Origin: Selenomonadales bacterium
Lineage (GTDB): Bacteria > Bacillota > UBA994
Direction: 5' to 3'
Length of the DNA stretch: 43,345 nt
Assembly: GCA_018335585.1 (NCBI GenBank)
Contig: JAGXRZ010000021.1
Location: forward strand, 1 to 43,345
Shown: one piece after another, positions 9,459-38,827 of the stretch
Layout of the letters: every line of letters begins with the position of its first letter
Position numbering within the stretch: the first letter of the stretch is position 1
The notes under the pieces: generated by a model
Told to the model about the DNA's origin: nothing
Seen by the model: only the letters and a program-made list of their open reading frames with translations
Database searches by the model: none
Program-made: the position numbers and the translations under genes

Positions 9459-10217
9459 ATGGGGGTGCGCTTTTTGGTCAAAGCCGACACACACGTGCAT
9501 ACTATCGCCAGCGGTCACGCTTACGGAACAGTACAAGAGATGGCCGTCGCCGCGCGCGAGAAAGGATTGGAGCTAATTGCGCTTTGTGACCACGGGCCGA
9601 GCCTGCCTGGTGCTCCGCACCGCTACTACTTCAGCAACTTGCTCGTACTGCCGCACTTTATCGCGGGGGTAGAGGTCTTGCGCGGCATCGAGGCAAATAT
9701 GCTTAATGAGCGCGGCGAACTCGACCTGGAGCGGCGTTTTCTTGAGCGCCTAGACTGGGTCGCGGCCGGTTTTCACGACGACTGCGTCACGCCCATGTCG
9801 CGCGACCTTAACACCCAGGCCATTCTAGGCGCGATTAGCACCGGCCTCGTCGACGTCATTGTTCACCCGGGCAACCCGCAATTTCCTATTCACCACGAGG
9901 TGGTCGTGCGGGCGATTGCCGAGGCGGGCATCGCCATGGAAGTAAACAACGCCTCACTTATCTATCCGCATCGTCGCGGGAGCGACAAGAACTGCGTGGA
10001 GCTTATTAAGCTAGCCATTCTGTACGGGGCAAACATTGTCTTGGGCAGTGACGCACATTCGCCCTGGCAGATTGGCGAAGTCTCGCAAGCCTACGCCTTA
10101 GCCGCAAGCTGTGGCGTGCCGGCTGCGCAAATACTCAACCTTACCGCCAGCGGCGTGCGCGAGTATCTTAAAAAACGGGGCAAGCCGCGCTACATCGCTG
10201 ATGCCCCCGTGGTTTGA
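9459..10217 (+). CDS. PHP-domain phosphoesterase (YcdX-like)
   Basis: A predicted metal-dependent phosphatase/phosphoesterase of the PHP superfamily. The metal ligands are visible in order: ADTHVHT near the N-terminus, CDHGPSLP, the Glu of GIEAN, AGFHDD, the HPGNP segment and GSDAHSP near the C-terminus. This set resembles the YcdX trinuclear zinc subgroup. The frame opens at ATG 9459, but that codon has no good ribosome binding site. A TTG at 9474, preceded by GGGGGTG at 9461-9467, gives MVKADTHVHT and may be the true start. Length is about 247-252 residues. It stands directly before rapZ, an arrangement that I recall from other Clostridia. The substrate is unknown. Confidence 0.85.
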   Translation: MGVRFLVKADTHVHTIASGHAYGTVQEMAVAAREKGLELIALCDHGPSLPGAPHRYYFSNLLVLPHFIAGVEVLRGIEANMLNERGELDLERRFLERLDWVAAGFHDDCVTPMSRDLNTQAILGAISTGLVDVIVHPGNPQFPIHHEVVVRAIAEAGIAMEVNNASLIYPHRRGSDKNCVELIKLAILYGANIVLGSDAHSPWQIGEVSQAYALAASCGVPAAQILNLTASGVREYLKKRGKPRYIADAPVV

Positions 10218-10231
10218 GGCAGGTGATGCTT

Positions 10232-11101
10232 ATGAAAGGCGCGGTCAAGTTCGTAATTATTACCGGGTTGTCGGGTGCGGGGAAGTCGCAAGCGATTAAA
10301 GTCTTTGAGGATGCCGACTACTTTTGTGTCGACAACCTTCCTCCGGCGCTTTTGCCGAAGTTCGCGGAACTCTGCGCCTCAGGCGGCACGATCAAGCGAG
10401 CCGCGCTCGTCATGGACATTCGCGGCGGGGAGTTCTTTAAATCGCTCTTTGATGCGCTTGCTTACCTTAGCTTCCACGAGTGGCCGCATGAGGTGTTGTT
10501 TTTGGAGGCGTCTGAAGAGGTCTTGGTGCGCAGGTTTAAGGAAACACGGCGCCGACATCCGCTTGCCGGCGAAGGCAGTATCCAGGATGGCATTAGGCGC
10601 GAAGTGGAGATGCTCGCGGAGATAAAGCGACGTGCCGATAAGATTATTAATACTTCCAGCCTCACCCCGGCGCAACTAAGGGAAGAGGTGCAGGCTCTCT
10701 TTCAACAAGGCGAATCAGGCGGGAAACTGCAGATTAGGTTGCTCTCGTTTGGCTTCAAGAAAGGGATTCCGCTCGACGCCGACTTTGTCTTTGACTGCCG
10801 TTTCTTGGCTAACCCCCACTACGTGCAGGAGCTAAAACCACTCACGGGGATAGACGCGCGGGTCAAGCAATTTGTGTTTGAGGACGAGGCCAGCCAGGAT
10901 TATCTCGCCATGATGCAGGAGATGGTGGAGTTCGTAATCCCGCGCTGCATCAAGGAAGGGAAGACCCAGTTGGTGGTCGCTATCGGCTGCACCGGCGGCA
11001 GGCACCGTTCGGTAGCTATGGCCGAAGCGCTAAAGGAGAGACTCGTGCTTGCGCGCCACCGGGTGGCGATAGAGCACCGGCATATAAGCGAGGAGGTGTA
11101 G
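10232..11101 (+). CDS. rapZ: RapZ/YvcJ nucleotide-binding protein
   Basis: A P-loop protein of the RapZ (YvcJ) family. In Escherichia coli RapZ delivers small RNA GlmZ to RNase E; the Bacillus relative YvcJ binds and hydrolyses nucleotides and affects competence. With the ATG at 10232, chosen for the preceding AGGCAGGTG and for family length, the product is 289 residues. It has Walker A GLSGAGKS (12-19), the VDNLPP motif (from about 33) and the conserved C-terminal GCTGGRHRSV (252-261). Upstream TTG, GTG and ATG codons at 10214-10226 are alternatives. It is followed after 2 bases by yvcK, as in many Firmicutes, but whiA is not next in line here. Confidence 0.94.
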   Translation: MKGAVKFVIITGLSGAGKSQAIKVFEDADYFCVDNLPPALLPKFAELCASGGTIKRAALVMDIRGGEFFKSLFDALAYLSFHEWPHEVLFLEASEEVLVRRFKETRRRHPLAGEGSIQDGIRREVEMLAEIKRRADKIINTSSLTPAQLREEVQALFQQGESGGKLQIRLLSFGFKKGIPLDADFVFDCRFLANPHYVQELKPLTGIDARVKQFVFEDEASQDYLAMMQEMVEFVIPRCIKEGKTQLVVAIGCTGGRHRSVAMAEALKERLVLARHRVAIEHRHISEEV

Positions 11102-11103
11102 CC

Positions 11104-12381
11104 TTGCGCTGGCTCAAGTGGCTTTACCCGGGTCTGCGAGTTAAGCGCTACATCTTTTTGGCGACGTGCGGCGTCTGCCTAAGTATGGTGGGCTTAGGGC
11201 TCCTATGGGGACGTCGGCTGCTGGGCTTTATTGAGGAACAGCTGGTAGTATATCTGCAGGCCTCAGCCGGCACGACCGCTCTCTACGTGACAGGTATGCT
11301 ACTAGTCATCAGTGGATTAGTACTGGTGGGCGTAGCGGTAAGAAGCGTCGTGCGCTCAATCCTCGAAATCATCACGCCCGAGCAAGAAGACAGGCTTGTC
11401 GATGTGCTGTTTAGGCGGCGGTTGCTTAAGAGCGGTCCGCGCATAGTGGCGATTGGCGGCGGCTCGGGCCTCTCGGTACTCTTGCGCGGGATAAAGAGCT
11501 ACACCAGTAATATCACCGCGATTGTCACTGTTTCGGACGACGGCGGCAGCTCGGGACGCTTGCGCGGTGAGATGGGTATACTGCCGCCCGGCGATATCCG
11601 CAATTGCGTGTTGGCCTTAGCCGACACCGAGTCGCTGTTAGAAAGCCTCTTCCAGTATCGCTTTAAGAACGGCGAGCTGGACGGACATAGCTTTGGCAAT
11701 CTGTTGATTGCCGCCATGACCTCGATTACGGGGGATTTTCAGCTAGCCGTCAAGGAGTTTAGCAAGGTTTTGGCTGTGCGGGGGCGGGTCTTGCCGGTGA
11801 CAAATGCCGATGTGCGCCTGCGGGCCGAACTTGAAGATGGCACGGTCGTAGAGGGTGAGACCAACGTCAGCTTGTGCGGCGCTCAGGTACGCGCACTCAG
11901 CCTTATCCCGAGCGACGCCGAGGCACTGCCGGAGGTGCTTAAGGCCATTGACGAAGCAGATGCCATAGTGCTTGGCCCCGGGAGCTTGTACACCTCAGTC
12001 ATCCCAAATTTGTTGGTGCGCGGCATGGGCGAAGCGCTGACGGCGGCTAAAGCTCCGAAAATCTACATCTGTAATGTTATGACGCAACCGGGGGAGACAG
12101 ATGGCTTTACCGCCTCACAGCACGTCACGGCCATAGAACGTTTTTCGTCGCCCCGTCTAATTGACTGGATTGTAGTTAACAGCGCGAGAGTGCGCCCGCA
12201 TTTAGTGTCCAAATATGCCGCGGCTAACTCCGCGCCGGTGGTATTAGATCTCCCGCGCCTAAGTCAACTCGGCCTGCGCATAGCCACAGGCGACCTACTA
12301 CAGCAGGGAGATGTAGTGCGACACGACCCCGAGAAGCTAGCGCGTCGCCTCATGGAGTTAATTGCCTCTGCCAAGAAGTGA
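11104..12381 (+). CDS. yvcK: YvcK/GlmR-type gluconeogenesis factor with membrane N-terminus
   Basis: A UDP-GlcNAc-binding regulator of the YvcK/GlmR (CofD-like) family, which in Bacillus supports cell-wall precursor supply during gluconeogenic growth. Conserved elements are VAIGGGSGLSVLLRGIK (GGGSG 118-122), SDDGGSSGRLR (144-154), PPGDIRN (161-167), GHSFGNLL and GPGSLYTSVIPNLL. Compared with the 317-residue Bacillus protein this one is 425 residues long, because about 110 N-terminal residues carry two hydrophobic segments (about 16-34 and 58-80) that should anchor it to the membrane; such extended forms occur in other Clostridia. It uses a TTG start preceded by AGGAGGTG at the end of rapZ. 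Confidence 0.93.
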   Translation: MRWLKWLYPGLRVKRYIFLATCGVCLSMVGLGLLWGRRLLGFIEEQLVVYLQASAGTTALYVTGMLLVISGLVLVGVAVRSVVRSILEIITPEQEDRLVDVLFRRRLLKSGPRIVAIGGGSGLSVLLRGIKSYTSNITAIVTVSDDGGSSGRLRGEMGILPPGDIRNCVLALADTESLLESLFQYRFKNGELDGHSFGNLLIAAMTSITGDFQLAVKEFSKVLAVRGRVLPVTNADVRLRAELEDGTVVEGETNVSLCGAQVRALSLIPSDAEALPEVLKAIDEADAIVLGPGSLYTSVIPNLLVRGMGEALTAAKAPKIYICNVMTQPGETDGFTASQHVTAIERFSSPRLIDWIVVNSARVRPHLVSKYAAANSAPVVLDLPRLSQLGLRIATGDLLQQGDVVRHDPEKLARRLMELIASAKK

Positions 12382-23658: not shown

Positions 23659-25122
23659 ATGGCGTTAAAGACTGCCGCCGAGTACATCGACTCCCTGCGA
23701 CGCATGAAGTTTGAGGCCTACCTGCTTGGAGAGCGCATAGAAAACATCGTCGACCATCCCCTGGTTAGGCCTTCGCTTAATGCGGTGGCCCTTACTTATG
23801 AGCTGGCACTCAACCCAGAATACGCCGCCTTGCTGACGACGAGTTCGAGCTTAACCGGCGAGAGAATCAGCCGCTTTTGCCATCTGCACCAAAGCGCCGA
23901 CGACTTGGTGGCGAAAGTTAAGATGCTGCGCCTCTTAGGGCAAAAAACTGCTGCCTGCTTTCAGCGGTGTGTCGGTATGGACGCCATTAACGCCGTCGAC
24001 AGCGCTACGTTTGAAATCGACCGCGCCTACGGCACCAAGTACCACGAGCGCTTCCGCCGCTGGCTCTGCGATATGCAGGCAAAAGACGCGACGATAGACG
24101 GCGCCATGACCGACCCTAAGGGCGACCGCAGCAAGTCACCCTCCCAGCAACCAGACCCAGACATGTACCTGCGTGTCGTCGCAGAGCGCCCAGACGGGAT
24201 AGTGGTGCGCGGGGCAAAGGTGCACCAGACCGGTGCGCTTAACTCACACGAAATATTGGCCATGCCGACCATAGCGCTTGCGGCGAGTGACCGAGCCTAT
24301 GCCGTCGCTTTTGCCGTCCCGGCCGACAGCGCTGGGCTCATCTACATTTACGGTCGCCAGTCATCCGACACGCGCAAGCTTGAAAACGGCAGCCTCGACG
24401 TCGGCAACGCGCGCTTTGGCGGTCATGAATGCCTAGTCGTCTTTGACGACGTGTTTGTGCCGTGGGAGCGCGTGTTTATGTGCGGGGAACACGACTACGC
24501 GGGACTATTGGTTGAGCGGTTTGCCGCTTATCACCGCCAGAGCTACGGCGGCTGCAAGGTTGGGGTAGGCGACGTCTTAATTGGGGCGGCCGCGCTAGCC
24601 GCGGAGTACAACGGCGCAAGTCGCGCAAGCCACGTCAAGGACAAACTCATCGAGATGACGCATCTTAACGAGACGCTCTACGCCTGTGGCCTTGCCTGCT
24701 CGTCCGAGGGGCGCGCCACTGCCACCGGCACGTATCTCGTCGACCTGTTGTTAGCTAACGTCTGCAAGCAAAACGTCACGCGCTTCCCCTATGAGATATC
24801 CCGCCTCGCCGAGGACATCGCCGGCGGCTTAATGGTAACGATGCCGAGCGAGCGCGACTTAAGTAACCCCGCCACTAAACCTTGGCTAGAGAAATACCTG
24901 CAGGGGGTAGCGGGAGTCCCCACAGAGCATCGCCTGCGCGTACTTCGCCTGATTGAAAATCTTACGTTAGGCGCAGGAGCAGTAGGTTACCGCACGGAAT
25001 CCATGCACGGCGCGGGCTCGCCACAGGCGCAACGTATCGTGATTGGGCGGCAGGCAGATTTTGCCGCCAAACAGAAGCTAGCCAAGGCCATAGCAGGGAT
25101 TACGGAGGGCTGCGAAGCATGA
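23659..25122 (+). CDS. abfD: 4-Hydroxybutyryl-CoA dehydratase / vinylacetyl-CoA delta-isomerase
   Basis: A FAD- and [4Fe-4S]-containing radical-type dehydratase that converts 4-hydroxybutyryl-CoA to crotonyl-CoA. It belongs to the 4-hydroxyphenylacetate 3-monooxygenase (HpaB) fold family, but the cluster ligands that define the dehydratase are all present: Cys100 and Cys104 (AACFQRC), His292 and Cys299 (YHRQSYGGC). Those of the Clostridium aminobutyricum enzyme are Cys99, Cys103, His292 and Cys299. Length is 487 residues against 490. Start ATG follows TTAGGAGGG. It overlaps the dehydrogenase gene by 4 bases. A promoter is not visible in the 17 bases after the upstream terminator, so expression may depend on read-through or an upstream start. 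Confidence 0.92.
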   Translation: MALKTAAEYIDSLRRMKFEAYLLGERIENIVDHPLVRPSLNAVALTYELALNPEYAALLTTSSSLTGERISRFCHLHQSADDLVAKVKMLRLLGQKTAACFQRCVGMDAINAVDSATFEIDRAYGTKYHERFRRWLCDMQAKDATIDGAMTDPKGDRSKSPSQQPDPDMYLRVVAERPDGIVVRGAKVHQTGALNSHEILAMPTIALAASDRAYAVAFAVPADSAGLIYIYGRQSSDTRKLENGSLDVGNARFGGHECLVVFDDVFVPWERVFMCGEHDYAGLLVERFAAYHRQSYGGCKVGVGDVLIGAAALAAEYNGASRASHVKDKLIEMTHLNETLYACGLACSSEGRATATGTYLVDLLLANVCKQNVTRFPYEISRLAEDIAGGLMVTMPSERDLSNPATKPWLEKYLQGVAGVPTEHRLRVLRLIENLTLGAGAVGYRTESMHGAGSPQAQRIVIGRQADFAAKQKLAKAIAGITEGCEA

Positions 25123-26237
25123 GGCTGTTTAGTCTGCCCACACAAATACACTGCTTTGATACCGCCGGTGAGTTTTGGCGCGAGTTTAATGTCGGCGCGG
25201 GCGATTTAGTGTTTACTCACCGCTTTATCTACGACGCGTATTTAGCTGCTTTGCCCTCCGCGTGTGACTTCCTGTTCTACGAGCAGTTCGGGACAGGGGA
25301 GCCCACCCACACCCTAGTTGACGCCGTCCGTCGGGCCATTAGCCCACGCGCTTACCGGCGCATCGTGGCCGTAGGAGGAGGGGCAGTCGCCGACACGGCA
25401 AAGTTCTTAGCGCTAGACGGGTCACATCCCACCCTCGACTTCTTAGAGAAACGTGCGCCCCTCGTCAAGGGGAAGGCCTTGGTTATCGTGCCTACTACCT
25501 GCGGCACCGGTAGCGAAGTGACAAATCTGGCGGTCTTGGCAGTAGAAGAAAAAGAGACCAAGTTTGGTCTCGGCGGTGATGCCTTTTATGCTGAGTATGC
25601 CGTCCTTATCCCGGAGTTGCTGGCGAGCCTGCCCTACGACTACTTTTTCTACAGCGCAGTCGACGCGCTGATTCACGCTGCAGAATCCCTGGTCTCGCCG
25701 CGCTCCAATAGCTACACCGAGCTATTTAGCCTGCAGGCCATCTCGCTGATTCTTGCAAGCTTTAGGCACATTGCCGAGCATGGGCGCGACGCGCGCTTTG
25801 GCCAACTCAAACAGCTCCTCCTTGCCAGCAACTACGCCGGCATCGCCTTTGGCAATACCGGCGTGGCAGCAGTTCACGCACTTTCCTATCCGCTTGGCGG
25901 CAAGTACCACGTGCCGCATGGGCAGGCGAACTACCAGTTCTTTGTGCCGGTGTTTCGCGCCTACGACCGGCTGAAGCCGGGCGGACACATTCGCGTGTTG
26001 CGCAGCGCTATCGCCACCGCCCTTACAGTAGACAGCGACCACGGCGTATGGTCGGCCCTTGACCTGCTGCTTAGTCGCTTGCTCCCACAGAAGCAATTAA
26101 GAGAATACAGCATGACAATCGACGAAATAGATTCCTTTACAGACAGCGTCCTAGAAAAACAGCAGCGCCTGCTCTCAAATAACTACGTAGAGCTAGATCG
26201 CGCCTGCATCCGCGCTATATACGCCGCGCGCTACTGA
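25119..26237 (+). CDS. 4-Hydroxybutyrate dehydrogenase (iron-type alcohol dehydrogenase)
   Basis: A group III (iron-containing) alcohol dehydrogenase of 372 residues. The NAD-binding GGGAVADTAK motif and PTTCGTGSEVT are present. Metal-binding His residues lie in HAAES and in HALSYPLGGKYHVPHGQAN. The coupling to the dehydratase gene (ATGA overlap) points to 4-hydroxybutyrate dehydrogenase, reducing succinate semialdehyde to 4-hydroxybutyrate in the route from succinate or GABA to crotonyl-CoA and butyrate. The CoA transferase that would link the two steps is not in the window. Its 3' end overlaps the converging MFS gene by 7 bases. Confidence 0.85.
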   Translation: MRLFSLPTQIHCFDTAGEFWREFNVGAGDLVFTHRFIYDAYLAALPSACDFLFYEQFGTGEPTHTLVDAVRRAISPRAYRRIVAVGGGAVADTAKFLALDGSHPTLDFLEKRAPLVKGKALVIVPTTCGTGSEVTNLAVLAVEEKETKFGLGGDAFYAEYAVLIPELLASLPYDYFFYSAVDALIHAAESLVSPRSNSYTELFSLQAISLILASFRHIAEHGRDARFGQLKQLLLASNYAGIAFGNTGVAAVHALSYPLGGKYHVPHGQANYQFFVPVFRAYDRLKPGGHIRVLRSAIATALTVDSDHGVWSALDLLLSRLLPQKQLREYSMTIDEIDSFTDSVLEKQQRLLSNNYVELDRACIRAIYAARY

Positions 26238-27579: not shown

Positions 27580-27750
27580 ATGAACGTTGAAGGAACCAGT
27601 CGTCATCTTCCCGGGGTAAAGTGTGTGGTGAACACCTGTCGCTATCACGTGAACACCAATCACTGTAGCGCCAAGGAGATTGAAGTGCAGTCGCCTAATG
27701 CTCGCAGCAGCAAAGACACCGACTGCAGGACATTCTCACCACGGACTTAA
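27580..27750 (+). CDS. DUF1540 mini-protein
   Basis: A 56-residue Cys-rich protein easily missed because of its size. The central block KCVVNTCRYHVNTNHCSAKE continues with IEVQSPNARSSKDTDCRTF; four Cys (15, 20, 29, 49) have the DUF1540 spacing and probably bind a metal ion. DUF1540 proteins are widespread in spore-forming Clostridia and Bacilli and have no defined function. ATG 27580 is preceded by AAAGGGGGTG with 6-base spacing. The gene stands alone between the divergent MFS gene and whiA and is followed by a hairpin. Confidence 0.85.
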   Translation: MNVEGTSRHLPGVKCVVNTCRYHVNTNHCSAKEIEVQSPNARSSKDTDCRTFSPRT

Positions 27751-27791: not shown

Positions 27792-27895
27792 TGCTATATT
27801 AGTGTGCGGAGGCAGAGGATTTGGAGCAGGGAAAACCGCGCACAAGTGGAATACTAAGTGAAGGTGCAAAGGCCGTAGGAGCGAGGGAGTGCGAA

Positions 27896-28840
27896 GTGAC
27901 CTTTACCGAGGATGTCAAAAGTGAACTCGTACGAGTTATTGACGAAGACCTCTGTTGTCGCCGCGCAGAGTTGGTTGCTATCATAAGGCAGCATGCCACC
28001 CTGCAGCTATCCCGCGGCGGCGGCCTCGGGTTAAACATTGCCACGCAAAGCCCCGGTGTGGCGCGGCTTATTTTGCGCCTTGTCAAGGAACATCAACCTG
28101 AGGCGCGGGTGTTTATCAGGCGCAGGTCGGCATTTCGCAAGAACCGCATGTACCTTATTTTCTGCCCGCAGGCCGAGGAAGTGCTATCTGCGGTAGGACT
28201 TTGGGACGCGAGTCACCGGCGAATCGAGTTAGTGCAGCCGGAGCTATCACAGGATTGTTGCCTGCGGGCTTATCTGCGGGGTGCATTCATTATCTCCGGC
28301 ACAATCACAGACCCTAATCGCGTGTCTTATCACCTTGAAATGGTGACCGAGTCCGAGGGACAAGCCGAGTACCTGTGCAGAGTAATGGAAAAGTGCAGCT
28401 TGACGCCGCGCATAGTCAGGCGTAAGGAGCTCTTTGTCGTATACCTGAAGGAAGGCGAGCAAGTAGTGGATTTTCTAAACCTCGTCGGAGCGCACGCCGC
28501 GCTCTTGCGAGTAGAAGAGGCTAGGGTGCGCAAGTCCATGCGCAACCAAGTTAACCGGCTAGTTAACGCCGAAACGGCTAACCTAAACAAAACCATGCAA
28601 ACATCGTGGCGGCAAACAGACGCCATTCGGCACATCGATCAGACAATGGGCAGTGTGAACTTGCCGGCACAGCTACGGGAGGCTGCGGACATACGCGCGC
28701 GGTACCCGGAGGCTAGTCTCGAAGAACTTGGCCTTTACTTTAAACCGCCGCTCAGCAAGAGCGCGGTAAATCATCGCCTGCGCAAACTAGAAAACATTGC
28801 GCGGGAGTTAGGGTTTAGAGGAGGGGAGGGGGAACGGTGA
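27896..28840 (+). CDS. whiA: WhiA sporulation/cell-division regulator
   Basis: A DNA-binding protein with an N-terminal LAGLIDADG homing-endonuclease-like domain and a C-terminal helix-turn-helix, which controls division and, in actinobacteria, sporulation genes. The GTG at 27896, after GAGGGAG, gives MTFTEDVKSEL, the standard WhiA N-terminus, and 314 residues; the longer frame from 27821 is unlikely. Conserved segments are LRGAFIISGTITDPNRVSYHLE, NRLVNAETANLNKTM and the C-terminal PPLSKSAVNHRLRKLENIA. It overlaps the HPr-like gene by 4 bases (GTGA). In Bacillus the order is rapZ-yvcK-whiA-crh; here rapZ and yvcK are about 15 kb upstream. Confidence 0.95.
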   Translation: MTFTEDVKSELVRVIDEDLCCRRAELVAIIRQHATLQLSRGGGLGLNIATQSPGVARLILRLVKEHQPEARVFIRRRSAFRKNRMYLIFCPQAEEVLSAVGLWDASHRRIELVQPELSQDCCLRAYLRGAFIISGTITDPNRVSYHLEMVTESEGQAEYLCRVMEKCSLTPRIVRRKELFVVYLKEGEQVVDFLNLVGAHAALLRVEEARVRKSMRNQVNRLVNAETANLNKTMQTSWRQTDAIRHIDQTMGSVNLPAQLREAADIRARYPEASLEELGLYFKPPLSKSAVNHRLRKLENIARELGFRGGEGER

Positions 28841-29112
28841 AAGAAGCAGAGCGCTCTGCGGTAATCTCTAACGAAGTGCTACACTTTCGCCCCTTTGCCC
28901 GCCTGCGCGAGCTCTGCGGGAAACTTAATGTAGACGTGCGGCTTAGCCACGGCGACGACACGCTCTCTGCCGCGAACATTCTTGCGCTGACCGGCTGGGA
29001 ACTTACCGCCGGCGACCGCGTATTAGTTACTGTGCGCGGCAGCGGCGACGTGCAGGCTGCATTAGACGCGATTATACAGTTTATTGAAGAGGGGTTTGGC
29101 GAGAGGCAGTGA
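28837..29112 (+). CDS. HPr-like phosphocarrier with His but without regulatory Ser46
   Basis: A 91-residue HPr/Crh-family protein. The catalytic loop is VLHFRPF, with His16 aligned to HPr His15 and the following Arg retained, so phosphorylation by enzyme I is plausible. In Bacillus HPr the second site is Ser46 in LKSIMGV. A gap-free alignment of that region places Asn47 (AANILAL) there, so HPr kinase should not act on it. This is the opposite of Crh, which lacks His15 but keeps Ser46 and is encoded at the same place after whiA. The C-terminal helices (AALDAIIQFIEEGFGE) are normal. It overlaps both whiA and the enzyme I gene by 4 bases. Confidence 0.85.
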   Translation: MKEAERSAVISNEVLHFRPFARLRELCGKLNVDVRLSHGDDTLSAANILALTGWELTAGDRVLVTVRGSGDVQAALDAIIQFIEEGFGERQ

Positions 29113-30545
29113 TAATAGCAGAAGGAACCGGTGTAGCAGGGGGAGCCGCTTCCGGCATAGCCTACCGGGCGTCAGCGCGGCGGCAGGCGGTCCTAAGCGT
29201 CGAGCAGGTATATAGCTCCGCAGAGAGGCGGTACGAGCGATGGGCGGAGGATGCATCTCTTCCCGGCGCGGCGCGTGAACTCGCGCTGGTCTATCTAGCG
29301 CTACTTGAAGACCCAGAGCTGCGGACTACCGTAGAGAAAGCCGTGTCTCGGGGGCGTTCCGTAGCCGAGGCTATCACAGAGGCCTGTGAACAACAAGCCA
29401 AGTTGCTTGACGGAGCGCGCCATCCGTACCTGCGGCAGCGTGCGGAAGACCTACGCGCGCTCGGGCAGGAGCTTTTGGCCATGGAAGACGCAGAAAGTCA
29501 AGGCGGCATATTGTTATCTGACTCGCTTACTCCGTTGGGCCTATACGAAGCCTACGGTAGCGGTGTGCGCGGCATCGTGCTGCGCGAACCCTTAGCTGCC
29601 ACTTCGCACTTAGCTATTTTGGCCCGCACGTTAAGTGTGCCACTGGTGGCCGATGTCTCGTTCGACATCAAAGCTTGGCAGGGACAGCTCTTAAGCATAG
29701 ACGGTGCAACCGGCCAGATTTGGGCCGGCGAGCGCAGCTTTGTCTCGACCCAGGTAGACTATACGCCCTTTCCGCTGTGGCTAAATGCAGCTTCGGCACG
29801 GGATATCGCGGCCGCGCAAGGCTATAAAGGCGTGGGGCTCTTCCGCACCGAGTTTCTCTATCTGCAATGTGGGGGCATGCCCGGCATAGAACAGGAAGAA
29901 GAGCACTATATCGCTGCGGTAAAGGCCGCGCTCGGTAGACCGGTCATCTTCCGCCTACTTGACCTAGGTTCCGACAAGCCCATACCGGGGGTGACGCGGG
30001 AGCGGGAACCTAACCCAATGTTAGGCGAGCGGGGCGTACGAGTTCTGCTCAGGCGGCGCGACATTCTGGAGCGGCAAATAAAGGCCTTGGTTAAGGCTTC
30101 GGCCTACGGGTCGCTCAGCATCATGGTACCTATGGTTACCAGTGCGCAAGAGATGTCTGCCGTCAGAGCCGTGCTTAGCGAGCAAGGTGCCGCGCATATT
30201 AAACTGGGGGCCATGCTGGAGACGCCTGCCGCTATGCTGATGGCCAGAGAGCTAGCCGAGGTAACCGACTTTTTTAGCCTCGGCACCAATGATTTGGCGG
30301 CCTATGTTTACGCGTACGATCGCGCGGGGGACTGGCAGTTGCCGGATGCCGGAGACGCCATGTTTCGCCTCATCGACTACGCGCTGCCCTTTGCCAAACA
30401 GCGAGGGCGTGAAGTCGGCGTCTGCGGTGAGCTTGCGGCTGACGCGGGGTATGCGGCGCGTTTTCTCGACGCCGGCTGTGACTACTTAAGCATGGTGGCT
30501 TCGGCATTTTCTGTTGTGGGGAAAGCTCTGCGCGGGAGAAACTGA
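29109..30545 (+). CDS. ptsI: Short enzyme I (phosphoenolpyruvate-protein phosphotransferase)
   Basis: Transfers phosphate from phosphoenolpyruvate to HPr. The phosphohistidine motif is TSHLAILAR with His167 (His189 in Escherichia coli). The PEP-binding barrel follows, with GLFRTEFLYL, LLDLGSDK, NPMLGERGVR, MVPMVTS, FFSLGTNDL and the active-site Cys439 in GVCGELA. At 478 residues it is about 90 shorter than the usual 570; most of the loss is in the N-terminal helical HPr-binding domain, with some at the C-terminus. The residues just before TSH (PLAA) differ from the usual GGR. The GTG start overlaps the HPr-like gene by 4 bases, so it probably serves that partner. Confidence 0.85.
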   Translation: MIIAEGTGVAGGAASGIAYRASARRQAVLSVEQVYSSAERRYERWAEDASLPGAARELALVYLALLEDPELRTTVEKAVSRGRSVAEAITEACEQQAKLLDGARHPYLRQRAEDLRALGQELLAMEDAESQGGILLSDSLTPLGLYEAYGSGVRGIVLREPLAATSHLAILARTLSVPLVADVSFDIKAWQGQLLSIDGATGQIWAGERSFVSTQVDYTPFPLWLNAASARDIAAAQGYKGVGLFRTEFLYLQCGGMPGIEQEEEHYIAAVKAALGRPVIFRLLDLGSDKPIPGVTREREPNPMLGERGVRVLLRRRDILERQIKALVKASAYGSLSIMVPMVTSAQEMSAVRAVLSEQGAAHIKLGAMLETPAAMLMARELAEVTDFFSLGTNDLAAYVYAYDRAGDWQLPDAGDAMFRLIDYALPFAKQRGREVGVCGELAADAGYAARFLDAGCDYLSMVASAFSVVGKALRGRN

Positions 30546-30585: not shown

Positions 30586-31587
30586 ATGAGAATCGCAATC
30601 AATGGTTTTGGACGCATCGGACGACAAGTATTTCGTATTGCCCATAAACGTGAGGATCTGACGATTGTAGCTATTAACGACCTTGCCCCTCCTAAAGCGC
30701 TGGCGCATCTTCTGCAGTATGACTCCAACTACGGGCGTTTTGACGCTAAGGTCGAAGTTACGGCCGAGGGCTTTAGCGTAGACGGCAAAGTTATTCGCGT
30801 CACGGCAGAGAAGGACCCAACCCGCTTGCCTTGGCGCGAGCTAGAAGTTGACGTCGTCGTTGAATGCACAGGGAAGTTTAAGGAACGCGATACCGCGGGC
30901 AAGCACCTGCAGGCAGGGGCCAAGAAGGTACTTATCAGCTCTCCGGCTACAGGCGAGGACATCACCATAGTGCTTGGCTGCAATGATGACAAGTACAGCC
31001 ATGCCGACCACCACATAATCTCGAACGCTTCCTGCACCACCAACGGCTTAGGACCGATGGCTAAAGTGCTGCATCAGGAGTTTGGCATCGTCAAGGGCTT
31101 AATGAACACGGTGCATGCCTTTACCAACGACCAGAGCATTCTCGACCAAGTCCACTCGGATTTGCGCCGCGCCCGCACTGCCGGGCAGTCGATTATTCCT
31201 TCGAGCACGGGTGCCGCCAAAGCCATCGGCTTAGTGCTGCCGGAGCTTAAGGGCAAGCTTAACGGTTTCGCCTTGCGCGTGCCCACAACTACCGTGTCTA
31301 TCGTCGACCTAACCGTAGAAGTCTCCAAGCCGACGACCAAAGAGGCCGTGAACGCCGCGTTTTGCCGGGCGGCAGCAGGCCCCTTGGCCGGAATCCTCGG
31401 CGTCAGCGACGAGCCGTTAGTTTCGGTTGACTATTTGGGAGATACTCGTTCGTCGATTGTCGACCTCGAACTTACACAGGTAATTGGCGATACTCTCGTC
31501 AAGGTCTGCAGCTGGTACGACAACGAGTGGGGATACTCCTGCCGCATGGTTGATGTGCTGTCGCTTATCGCTAAGCACATGCAGTAG
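30586..31587 (+). CDS. gap: Glyceraldehyde-3-phosphate dehydrogenase (phosphorylating)
   Basis: Oxidises glyceraldehyde 3-phosphate to 1,3-bisphosphoglycerate with NAD. The 333-residue protein starts MRIAINGFGRIGRQVFR, has Asp32 in AINDLAPP (NAD preference), catalytic Cys150 in SNASCTTNG and His177 in NTVHAFTNDQ. The second Cys of the common SCTTNC motif is Gly154 here. AGAGGAGG precedes the ATG. It is first in the glycolytic block, 40 bases after the enzyme I gene. There is no CggR-type repressor gene in front of it, unlike in Bacillus. Confidence 0.97.
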   Translation: MRIAINGFGRIGRQVFRIAHKREDLTIVAINDLAPPKALAHLLQYDSNYGRFDAKVEVTAEGFSVDGKVIRVTAEKDPTRLPWRELEVDVVVECTGKFKERDTAGKHLQAGAKKVLISSPATGEDITIVLGCNDDKYSHADHHIISNASCTTNGLGPMAKVLHQEFGIVKGLMNTVHAFTNDQSILDQVHSDLRRARTAGQSIIPSSTGAAKAIGLVLPELKGKLNGFALRVPTTTVSIVDLTVEVSKPTTKEAVNAAFCRAAAGPLAGILGVSDEPLVSVDYLGDTRSSIVDLELTQVIGDTLVKVCSWYDNEWGYSCRMVDVLSLIAKHMQ

Positions 31588-31598
31588 GAAGACTTGCG

Positions 31599-32798
31599 AT
31601 GGAAAAACTTACGTTAAAAGATATCGAGGTTAGCAACAAGTGTGTATTTGTGCGGGTCGACTTTAACGTGCCGCTTGATGACAGCGGCGCGGTTACCGAC
31701 GACACTCGCATTCGGGCTGCTTTACCCACCATTCGTTACTTGCGCGAGCAGTCGGCGAAAGTGATTTTGGCAAGCCACCTCGGGCGCCCGAAGGGCGGGT
31801 TCGAGGCTCGCTACAGCACAGCGCCGGCGGCGCGTAGGCTCGCGGAGTTGCTCGGGGTTGATGTCCCGGTTTTGCCCGACTGCATCGGGCCGGAAGTAGA
31901 AGCGCGCGTCGCCGCCATGAACCCCGGCGATGTAGTGATGCTGGAAAACCTGCGCTTTCATGTGGCAGAAGAAAAGAACGGCGCGGAGTTTGCGCAGGCC
32001 TTAGCGCGCTTAGGCGAAGTGTATGTCAATGACGCCTTTGGCGCTGCTCACCGCGCCCACGCCTCCGTCTCCGGCGTGCCTGCGCTCCTTACGCCCGCTG
32101 CAGCAGGCTTTCTGATGAGCAAAGAACTAGACTTTCTCGGCGGTGCGCTCGAGAGCCCGCGGCGGCCTTTTGTGGCGATTCTAGGCGGCGCTAAAGTCTC
32201 GGACAAAATTAAGGTCATCGAAGCGTTGCTTAGGCGCGCCGATAGCCTAATTATCGGCGGCGGCATGGCCAACACCTTCCTTAAGGCGCGGGGCGTCGAT
32301 GTAGGCAAGTCGCTCTATGAGCCGACGCAAGTAGAGCTAGCCGCCGAACTGCTTGACCTAGCCGAGCGCAGCAAGGTAGCCGTGCACCTGCCAAGCGACG
32401 TCGTGGTCGCGTCAGACATTAACGCCGAAGAGGGCGAGATAGTGGGCCTCGCGGACATTCCAAAAGATGCGGCCATCGTCGACATAGGCCCCGCTACAGG
32501 CGAGAGCTTTGCTGCCGTTATCGCCGCGGCAAGACTCGTGCTGTGGAACGGTCCCATGGGCGTGTTTGAGAACCCGGTCTTTGCCGTGGGCACGTTTGGT
32601 ATTGCCGAGGCCTTAGCGGCTTCACAGGCAGTCACCATTGTAGGCGGCGGGGACAGTGTCGCGGCCGTCGAGCAGTCCGGCTTAGCCGCGCGCATGACAC
32701 ATATGTCGACCGGAGGCGGGGCTTCCCTCGAGTTTCTGGAAGGGAAGGTATTGCCGGGTGTAGCCGCGCTGACCGATAAATATGGAAAAAGTGAGTAG
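31599..32798 (+). CDS. pgk: Phosphoglycerate kinase
   Basis: Transfers phosphate from 1,3-bisphosphoglycerate to ADP, the first ATP-forming step of lower glycolysis. The 399-residue protein shows [15 protein letters not shown] near the N-terminus, [35 protein letters not shown], the ADP-binding [14 protein letters not shown] and the C-terminal [12 protein letters not shown] and [13 protein letters not shown]. It begins 11 bases after gap and overlaps tpiA by 17 bases. Confidence 0.97.
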
Positions 32799-33554
32799 GG
32801 TAGCCACGCCCTTAGTTATTGGCAATTGGAAGATGAACGGCATGCTCGCCGCGAGCGGCAAGCTGACTCGCGAGTTAGTAGCGCTGCTTGCCGAACATGC
32901 GACGTGCGAAGTCGTCGTCTGCCCACCGTTTACGGCCCTGCTGTCGGTGGCCGGAGTTCTCAGTGCTGCAAAGATTCGCCTCGGCGCGCAAAACGGCTAT
33001 CCCGCCGAAAAAGGCGCCTTTACCGGTGAAGTTTCGATGCCGATGCTGCGCGACCTAGGCTGCGACTACGTTCTCGTAGGCCACTCCGAACGCCGGCAAC
33101 ATCTAGGGGAGGATGACGGATTTATTGCGCGCAAAGTTCGGGCAGCGGTAGAGAGCGGTCTTACCCCCGTGCTCTGTGTCGGTGAAAGCCGCGCAGTGCG
33201 TGCGGCAGGAGAGAGCGAGCGTCATGTGCTAAGGCAAATCGAACTGGGCTTAGAGCTACTGCCGAGCGAGGCGAGCTTTGTCGTGGCCTACGAGCCGGTT
33301 TGGGCTATCGGTACCTCTCTTGCGGCCAGCGCACAGGACGCGAGCGCTGTGCTTGCGGCAGTGAAGGCGTGGTTATGCAAAGAGCGCGGCATCCGCGAGC
33401 AGGCTTTTAGGCTACTTTACGGCGGCAGTGTCACGCCGGAAAACATCGCGGAGTTCACCGCCCAAAGCGAAATAGACGGGGCCTTAGTCGGCGGTGCGAG
33501 CCTAAGCGCAGAAACTTTTGCGGCCGTGGTAGTCGGCGCCGCGCGGGGGTATTT

Positions 33555-33570
<16 letters not shown>
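32782..33570 (+). CDS. tpiA: Triosephosphate isomerase
   Basis: Interconverts dihydroxyacetone phosphate and glyceraldehyde 3-phosphate. Catalytic residues are Lys17 (IGNWKMN), His101 (VGHSERR) and Glu171 (VAYEPVWAIGT), and the phosphate-binding YGGSV lies near the C-terminus. Length is 262 residues. ATG 32782 lies inside pgk; a GTG at 32791 is an alternative giving a shorter overlap. The 3' end overlaps gpmI by 16 bases, so translation of the three genes is interlocked. Confidence 0.96.

Positions 33571-36361
<2,791 letters not shown>

Positions 36362-36829: not shown

Positions 36830-38827
<1,998 letters not shown>

What the first reader, a model, noticed from the sequence alone, without database searches (positions are those of the whole stretch)
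28837..30545. WhiA-coupled HPr with His but no Ser46, paired with a shortened enzyme I
The HPr-like protein keeps the enzyme I phosphorylation site (His16) but has Asn47 in place of Ser46, the reverse of Crh at the same locus in Bacillus. The following enzyme I is about 90 residues short and has an altered phosphohistidine motif. All three genes overlap by 4 bases. This suggests a private phosphorelay linked to WhiA or to a DhaK-like or regulatory target rather than to sugar uptake and CcpA control.
Basis: partly seen in the sequence, partly recalled or inferred. Interest (0 to 1): 0.7.

Follow-up and report, generated by a model that had tools for sequence, protein, structure and literature searches.

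The report
Sole divergent PTS phosphorelay beside WhiA
Two adjacent genes encode an unusual, trimmed-down version of the bacterial phosphate relay that powers sugar uptake; it is the only such relay found in this genome and most likely serves its single sugar transporter, rather than being a private side circuit.

Summary
Window 28837-29112 encodes an HPr fold with His16 at the His15 site and Asn47 at the Ser46 site. Window 29109-30545 encodes a 478-residue enzyme I with an altered phosphohistidine motif. Both junctions are 4-base GTGA overlaps.

The "private phosphorelay, not sugar uptake" reading does not fit. This pair is the only HPr and only enzyme I found in a 96%-complete genome, which also encodes an intact glucose/GlcNAc-type EIICBA. 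The same holds in three relatives. The three relatives that lack the short EI carry an ordinary HPr/EI instead; one has both. All EI catalytic and PEP-site residues checked are kept in all five short EIs. The missing ~95 residues lie in the start of the helical subdomain, the interdomain linker, a loop and the C-terminal tail. The "lost Ser46" is not a fixed trait: the site is N, S or R among relatives, and no HPr kinase was found (weak control).

Most likely this is a lineage-restricted, fast-diverged but functional general PTS chain that can replace the canonical EI/HPr. The WhiA linkage (and RpoN linkage in four relatives) of this HPr, kept even where a second HPr exists, leaves an extra His-phosphate regulatory role open.

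The parts
27896..28840 (+). whiA (sporulation/division regulator WhiA); GTG at 27896 is the start that matches the relatives, the TTG at 27821 being an upstream extension
   Evidence: TIGR00647 6.1e-84; Pfam WhiA domains; relatives begin MTFTE..; DNA at 27896
28837..29112 (+). HPr-like phosphocarrier, 91 aa, His16 = His15 site, Asn47 = Ser46 site
   Evidence: PF00381 5.8e-11; alignments; AF2 model pLDDT 94, Z 13.5 to E. coli HPr
28882..28884 (+). codon of the predicted phospho-acceptor His16
   Evidence: alignment to HPr His15; sequence
28975..28977 (+). codon of Asn47, the position of regulatory Ser46; N/S/R among relatives
   Evidence: sequence
29109..30545 (+). short enzyme I, 478 aa, His167 (= H189), the PEP-site residues and Cys439 (= C502) kept
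30586..36361 (+). downstream glycolytic genes gapA-pgk-tpiA-gpmI-eno, same strand, 40 bases after the EI gene
   Evidence: ORFs; same order in relatives
10214..12381 (+). rapZ and yvcK/glmR, the usual whiA neighbours, here about 15 kb upstream of whiA
   Evidence: Pfam RapZ domains and CofD/YvcK

Best explanation
The pair is a functional, lineage-restricted general PTS phosphoryl chain. Short EI autophosphorylates on His167 from PEP, passes the phosphate to His16 of the WhiA-linked HPr, and HPr passes it to the EIIA domain of the genome's single EIICBA glucose/GlcNAc-type permease, which imports and phosphorylates sugar feeding glycolysis, whose genes lie next door. Shown here: presence, intact residues, fold, purifying selection, sole-copy status, and the partly complementary distribution with canonical EI/HPr. 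Inferred: the actual phosphotransfer steps and the sugar. Seryl control by an HPr kinase is probably absent, and the Ser46 site has drifted.
For: Only HPr and only EI (the other PEP-utilizers_C protein is a 902-aa frame of PPDK size) in a 96%-complete genome. One EIICBA with EIIB Cys394 and EIIA His514/His529 intact, an EIIC of this kind in all 8 family genomes. Short EI present in G000-G003 and G005; G004, G006 and G007 lack it and have canonical HPr+EI; G001 has both. H189, R296, R332, D335, K340, R358, E431, N454, D455, R465 and C502 equivalents invariant in all five short EIs. The EI model superposes 460 residues on phosphorylated E. coli EI, Z 42.8, and keeps a helical HPr-binding subdomain. 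dN/dS for HPr and EI 0.06-0.23 within the genus.
Against: No biochemistry. The Thr168 equivalent, thought to contact the phosphohistidine, is Leu, and the GG before the His motif is lost, so activity may be altered. The EIICBA gene is not linked to the pair. EII families other than PF02378, PF00359 and PF03610 were not searched genome-wide. The WhiA-linked HPr is kept in G004, G006 and G007 beside a second HPr, which suggests more than supplying EII. The sample is 8 genomes from one family, so the complementary distribution may reflect few events.
Confidence: 0.7

Rival explanations
1. Regulatory His-phosphate relay: the WhiA/RpoN-linked HPr reports PEP/sugar flux by its His16~P to WhiA, RpoN-dependent activators or another non-PTS target, with the short EI as its dedicated kinase. 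It would be a mirror image of Crh, and sugar transport would be secondary or unrelated.
For: whiA-HPr linkage in 8/8 family genomes, including four with a separate canonical HPr. The HFRP-ARL and WEL segments are conserved in this HPr regardless of partner EI. rpoN sits in the locus in G004-G007, recalling ptsO/rpoN clusters in Proteobacteria (PMC2405797).
Against: In G000, G002, G003 and G005 it is the only HPr/EI beside an EIIC-bearing permease, so a purely regulatory role leaves the permease without a phosphate donor. No EIIA-Ntr or EIIA-Man found in G000.
Confidence: 0.2
2. Decaying remnant: a degenerate EI and HPr on their way out, the EIICBA being inactive or facilitating diffusion.
For: Long stem branch (2.1 + 1.3 changes per column), deletions and loss of motif glycines and Thr168.
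Against: dN/dS 0.06-0.23, comparable with TpiA and GpmI; no frameshifts or stops; catalytic residues invariant; same length in 4 species.
Confidence: 0.06
3. Assembly gap: a canonical ptsHI exists in the organism but is missing from the draft, so the short pair is a dispensable second chain.
For: Genome is a 69-contig draft, 96% complete; G001 has both pairs.
Against: Four drafts (95-97% complete: G000, G002, G003, G005) all lack a canonical pair.
Confidence: 0.04

Closest known systems
Canonical PTS enzyme I and HPr (PtsI/PtsH) of Bacillota and E. coli
   Same: Fold, domain order, phospho-His, PEP-site residues, gene order HPr-EI
   Different: EI 478 instead of about 570 aa (interdomain linker, start of the helical subdomain, a loop and C-terminal tail shortened); GGRTSH is LAATSH; Thr168 is Leu; about 30% identity; scores below NCBIfam cut-offs TIGR01417 and TIGR01003; located beside whiA
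Crh of Bacillus (whiA-linked HPr paralogue)
   Same: Position directly downstream of whiA, HPr fold (Z 10.1 to 1mu4)
   Different: Keeps the His (Crh lacks it, general knowledge) and has no fixed Ser46; paired with its own EI; no HprK found
PTS-Ntr (PtsP-NPr-PtsN) of Proteobacteria
   Same: Parallel EI/HPr chain, in four relatives with rpoN in the same locus
   Different: No GAF domain in EI, no EIIA-Ntr found, and here a PTS permease is present
DhaM phosphoryl donor of dihydroxyacetone kinase
   Same: Weak similarity of HPr and EI-N parts
   Different: No EIIA-Man domain in this genome and only one Dak2-domain protein, a single 547-aa ORF; the Dha operon with canonical HPr-EI is in relative G004

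Membership tests
PTS enzyme I | Three EI domains in order (N-terminal, mobile His, PEP-binding) | tested here: met
   PF05524, PF00391 and PF02896 all above cut-off; model 4-478 on E. coli EI 2-541
PTS enzyme I | Active-site His and PEP/Mg ligands, catalytic Cys | tested here: met
   H167, R246, R282, D285, K290, R308, E371, N394, D395, R405, C439
PTS enzyme I | Curated full-length model TIGR01417 cut-off (341.7 bits) | tested here: not met
   257.2 bits in two stretches; a divergent member by domains and residues, below the equivalog threshold
PTS enzyme I | PEP-dependent phosphorylation of HPr | not testable with these tools
   needs biochemistry
HPr | HPr fold and PF00381 | tested here: met
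   42.7 bits, cut-off 23; Z 13.5
HPr | His15 and Arg17 (HxRP) | tested here: met
   HFRP in 8/8 relatives
HPr | Curated model TIGR01003 cut-off (47.9 bits) | tested here: not met
   27.2 bits; divergent
Gram-positive HPr with seryl control | Regulatory Ser46 | tested here: not met
   Asn47 here; N/S/R in relatives
Gram-positive HPr with seryl control | HPr kinase in the genome | tested here: inconclusive
   no HprK match in 15 genomes, but those searches also missed B. subtilis among the controls
Crh | Next to whiA | tested here: met
Crh | No His15, Ser46 present | tested here: not met
   His16 present, Asn47
PTS-Ntr | EIIA-Ntr partner and GAF-EI | tested here: not met
   no PF00359 match in genome; no GAF hit in EI
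DhaM/Dha PTS | EIIA-Man domain in the genome | tested here: not met

The most novel reading that the evidence does not exclude
The WhiA- and RpoN-linked HPr is a reverse Crh: a His-phosphate-only reporter of PEP/sugar flux that acts on WhiA, sigma-54 activators or another regulator, fed by its own minimal enzyme I, and secondarily recruited as the sole donor for the sugar permease when the canonical ptsHI was lost.
Probability: 0.2. Interest if true: 0.7.

Novelty: new variant of a known kind. Interest (0 to 1): 0.42.

Why it matters
It is a natural minimal enzyme I (478 aa) that appears to replace the canonical one within a single bacterial family, so it suggests which parts of EI (linker helix, C-terminal tail, motif glycines, Thr168) may be dispensable. 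It also keeps an HPr at the whiA locus with the phosphorylation logic opposite to Crh, which makes the old question of why HPr paralogues sit beside whiA testable in a setting without an evident HPr kinase.

Tried and rejected
Outside the family, the HPr profile score drops from 127-168 bits to 41 or less, and no whiA was detected beside those HPrs. An apparent 554-aa frame around the G004 HPr looked like a fusion, but HPr and RpoN are separate ORFs. DhaK coupling rejected. The short EI as a recent copy of the family's canonical EI is rejected: the two form separate fully supported clades (midpoint root, long branches). Promoter and terminator scans were near chance. Papers on whiA-crh linkage were found (PMC10714963); no paper describing this pair was found.

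Full report
OBSERVATION. The whiA start is probably GTG 27896, which matches the relatives, rather than the TTG at 27821. The HPr-like protein hits PTS-HPr (5.8e-11) and the EI hits all three EI domain families, but both score below the NCBIfam cut-offs for ordinary HPr and EI, so both are divergent.

RESIDUES AND STRUCTURE OF HPr. Sequence alignment places His16 on His15 and Asn47 on Ser46. The AlphaFold2 model (pLDDT 94) is an ordinary HPr fold, with residue 47 just before the short helix 48-52, and residues 3-89 superpose on E. coli HPr 1-85 at Z 13.5, rmsd 1.6 over 84 residues. In the eight genomes of the family the residue at the Ser46 site is N, S, N, S, S, R, R, R (G000, G003, G002, G001, G005, G006, G007, G004). 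Even G002 and G003, whose other operon proteins are 91-99% identical, differ there. The HxRP motif is kept in 8/8. So the missing serine looks like drift at an unconstrained site rather than a conserved reversal of Crh.

STRUCTURE OF EI. Aligned to E. coli PtsI, the short EI lacks about 14 residues at the start of the HPr-binding helical subdomain, 9 after it, 25 of the interdomain linker, 10 in a loop of the PEP domain, about 4 near residue 475, and 34 at the C-terminus. His189, Arg296, Arg332, Asp335, Lys340, Arg358, Glu431, Asn454, Asp455, Arg465 and Cys502 are all matched in all five short EIs. The changes near the active site are the loss of GGR before TSH and Thr168 to Leu. The model (pLDDT 81) keeps the helical subdomain and superposes 460 residues on phosphorylated E. 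coli EI, Z 42.8, rmsd 6.1.

GENOME CONTEXT. In the own genome this is the only HPr and the only EI; the second PEP-utilizers_C match is a 902-aa frame of PPDK size. There is one EIIC, in a 610-aa EIICBA with EIIC, EIIB and EIIA domains, closest to GlcNAc- and glucose-specific permeases but below their equivalog cut-offs, with EIIB Cys394 and EIIA His514 and His529 intact. It sits between ydjC and a patatin gene, and homologues with the same neighbours are seen in G001 and G005. No EIIA-Fru/Ntr, no EIIA-Man, and a single Dak2-domain protein of 547 aa, the size of the FakA/YloV type. No HprK by two models in 15 genomes; the same searches failed to ring in B. subtilis, which has HprK (general knowledge), so this absence is not firm.

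RELATIVES. Of 398 phylum genomes only G000-G003 and G005 carry the short EI at 1e-90. The WhiA-linked HPr is in all eight family genomes, and the profile score falls from 127 or more bits to 41 or fewer outside. Gene orders: whiA-HPr-EIshort-gapA in G000-G003; whiA-HPr-EIshort-rpoN-gapA in G005; whiA-HPr-rpoN-gapA in G004; whiA-HPr-rpoN in G006 and G007, with gapA further along on the same strand. So the ancestral order was probably whiA-HPr-EI-rpoN-gapA (inference). G004, G006 and G007, which lack the short EI, have a canonical HPr+EI elsewhere: in a dhaK-dhaL-dhaM operon in G004, unlinked to EII genes in G006 and G007. G001 has both, the canonical pair beside nagA/nagB-like and EII-like genes (neighbours judged by eye). 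An EIIC is in all eight. Thus every genome with the permease has at least one EI/HPr, and in four of eight the only one is the short pair; that this is an assembly gap in all four (95-97% complete) is unlikely.

EVOLUTION. In a maximum-likelihood tree the five short EIs form one clade (100/100) on a very long stem and the family's canonical EIs another. The place of the short clade is unsure because of long-branch effects. dN/dS within the genus is 0.06-0.23 for HPr and EI, like TpiA and GpmI and higher than GapA and Eno: functional, fast-evolving proteins.

MECHANISM. Best supported: PEP to His167 of EI, to His16 of HPr, to the EIIA domain of the single EIICBA, supplying glucose or amino-sugar phosphate to glycolysis, whose genes follow in the same direction 40 bases later. 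Shown: genes, residues, fold, selection, sole-copy status. Inferred: every transfer step, the substrate and co-transcription. The whiA-crh linkage known from Bacillus (PMC10714963) and the rapZ-yvcK genes 15 kb upstream in this window suggest that the HPr occupies the Crh position of an ancestral rapZ-yvcK-whiA-HPr cluster that has been split here.

WHAT REMAINS OPEN. The WhiA-linked HPr is kept beside a second HPr in G001, G004, G006 and G007, and its HFRP-ARL and WEL segments are conserved whichever EI is present. This is the best hint of an additional, probably regulatory, role. PTS chains thought to serve only regulation are known (PMC2405797, PMC2937029), so such a role would not be without precedent.

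Noticed in passing
window 10214-12381: rapZ and yvcK (GlmR), the usual upstream neighbours of whiA, lie about 15 kb upstream with glutamine synthetase, TldD/PmbA and other genes in between; the classical cluster has been split.
   Followed up: partly
window 27580-27750: A small DUF1540 Cys-rich protein (56 aa) just upstream of whiA, not in the ORF list because of its size.
   Followed up: partly
L038, L142, L143, L178 (relatives G005, G006, G007, G004): rpoN (sigma-54) lies directly after the WhiA-linked HPr (or after its EI) in four relatives; it is absent from this spot in the window's genus.
   Followed up: partly
L039 (relative G001): A sugar-PTS-like cluster with nagA/nagB-like genes carries its own canonical HPr and EI; this HPr and those of G006/G007 read HARA instead of HARP after the active His, and this EI ORF is only 503 aa, matching the TIGR01417 profile to position 490 of 565.
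   Followed up: no
window 23659-26237: An HpaB-family (4-hydroxybutyryl-CoA dehydratase-like) gene overlapping an iron-containing alcohol dehydrogenase gene by 4 bases.
   Followed up: no
window 36830-38827: A membrane proton-pumping pyrophosphatase follows the glycolytic operon, as in the relatives.
   Followed up: no
The genome search control set: Both HPr-kinase models failed to ring in the B. subtilis control genome although it should have HprK; absence calls for HprK with this tool need care.
   Followed up: partly
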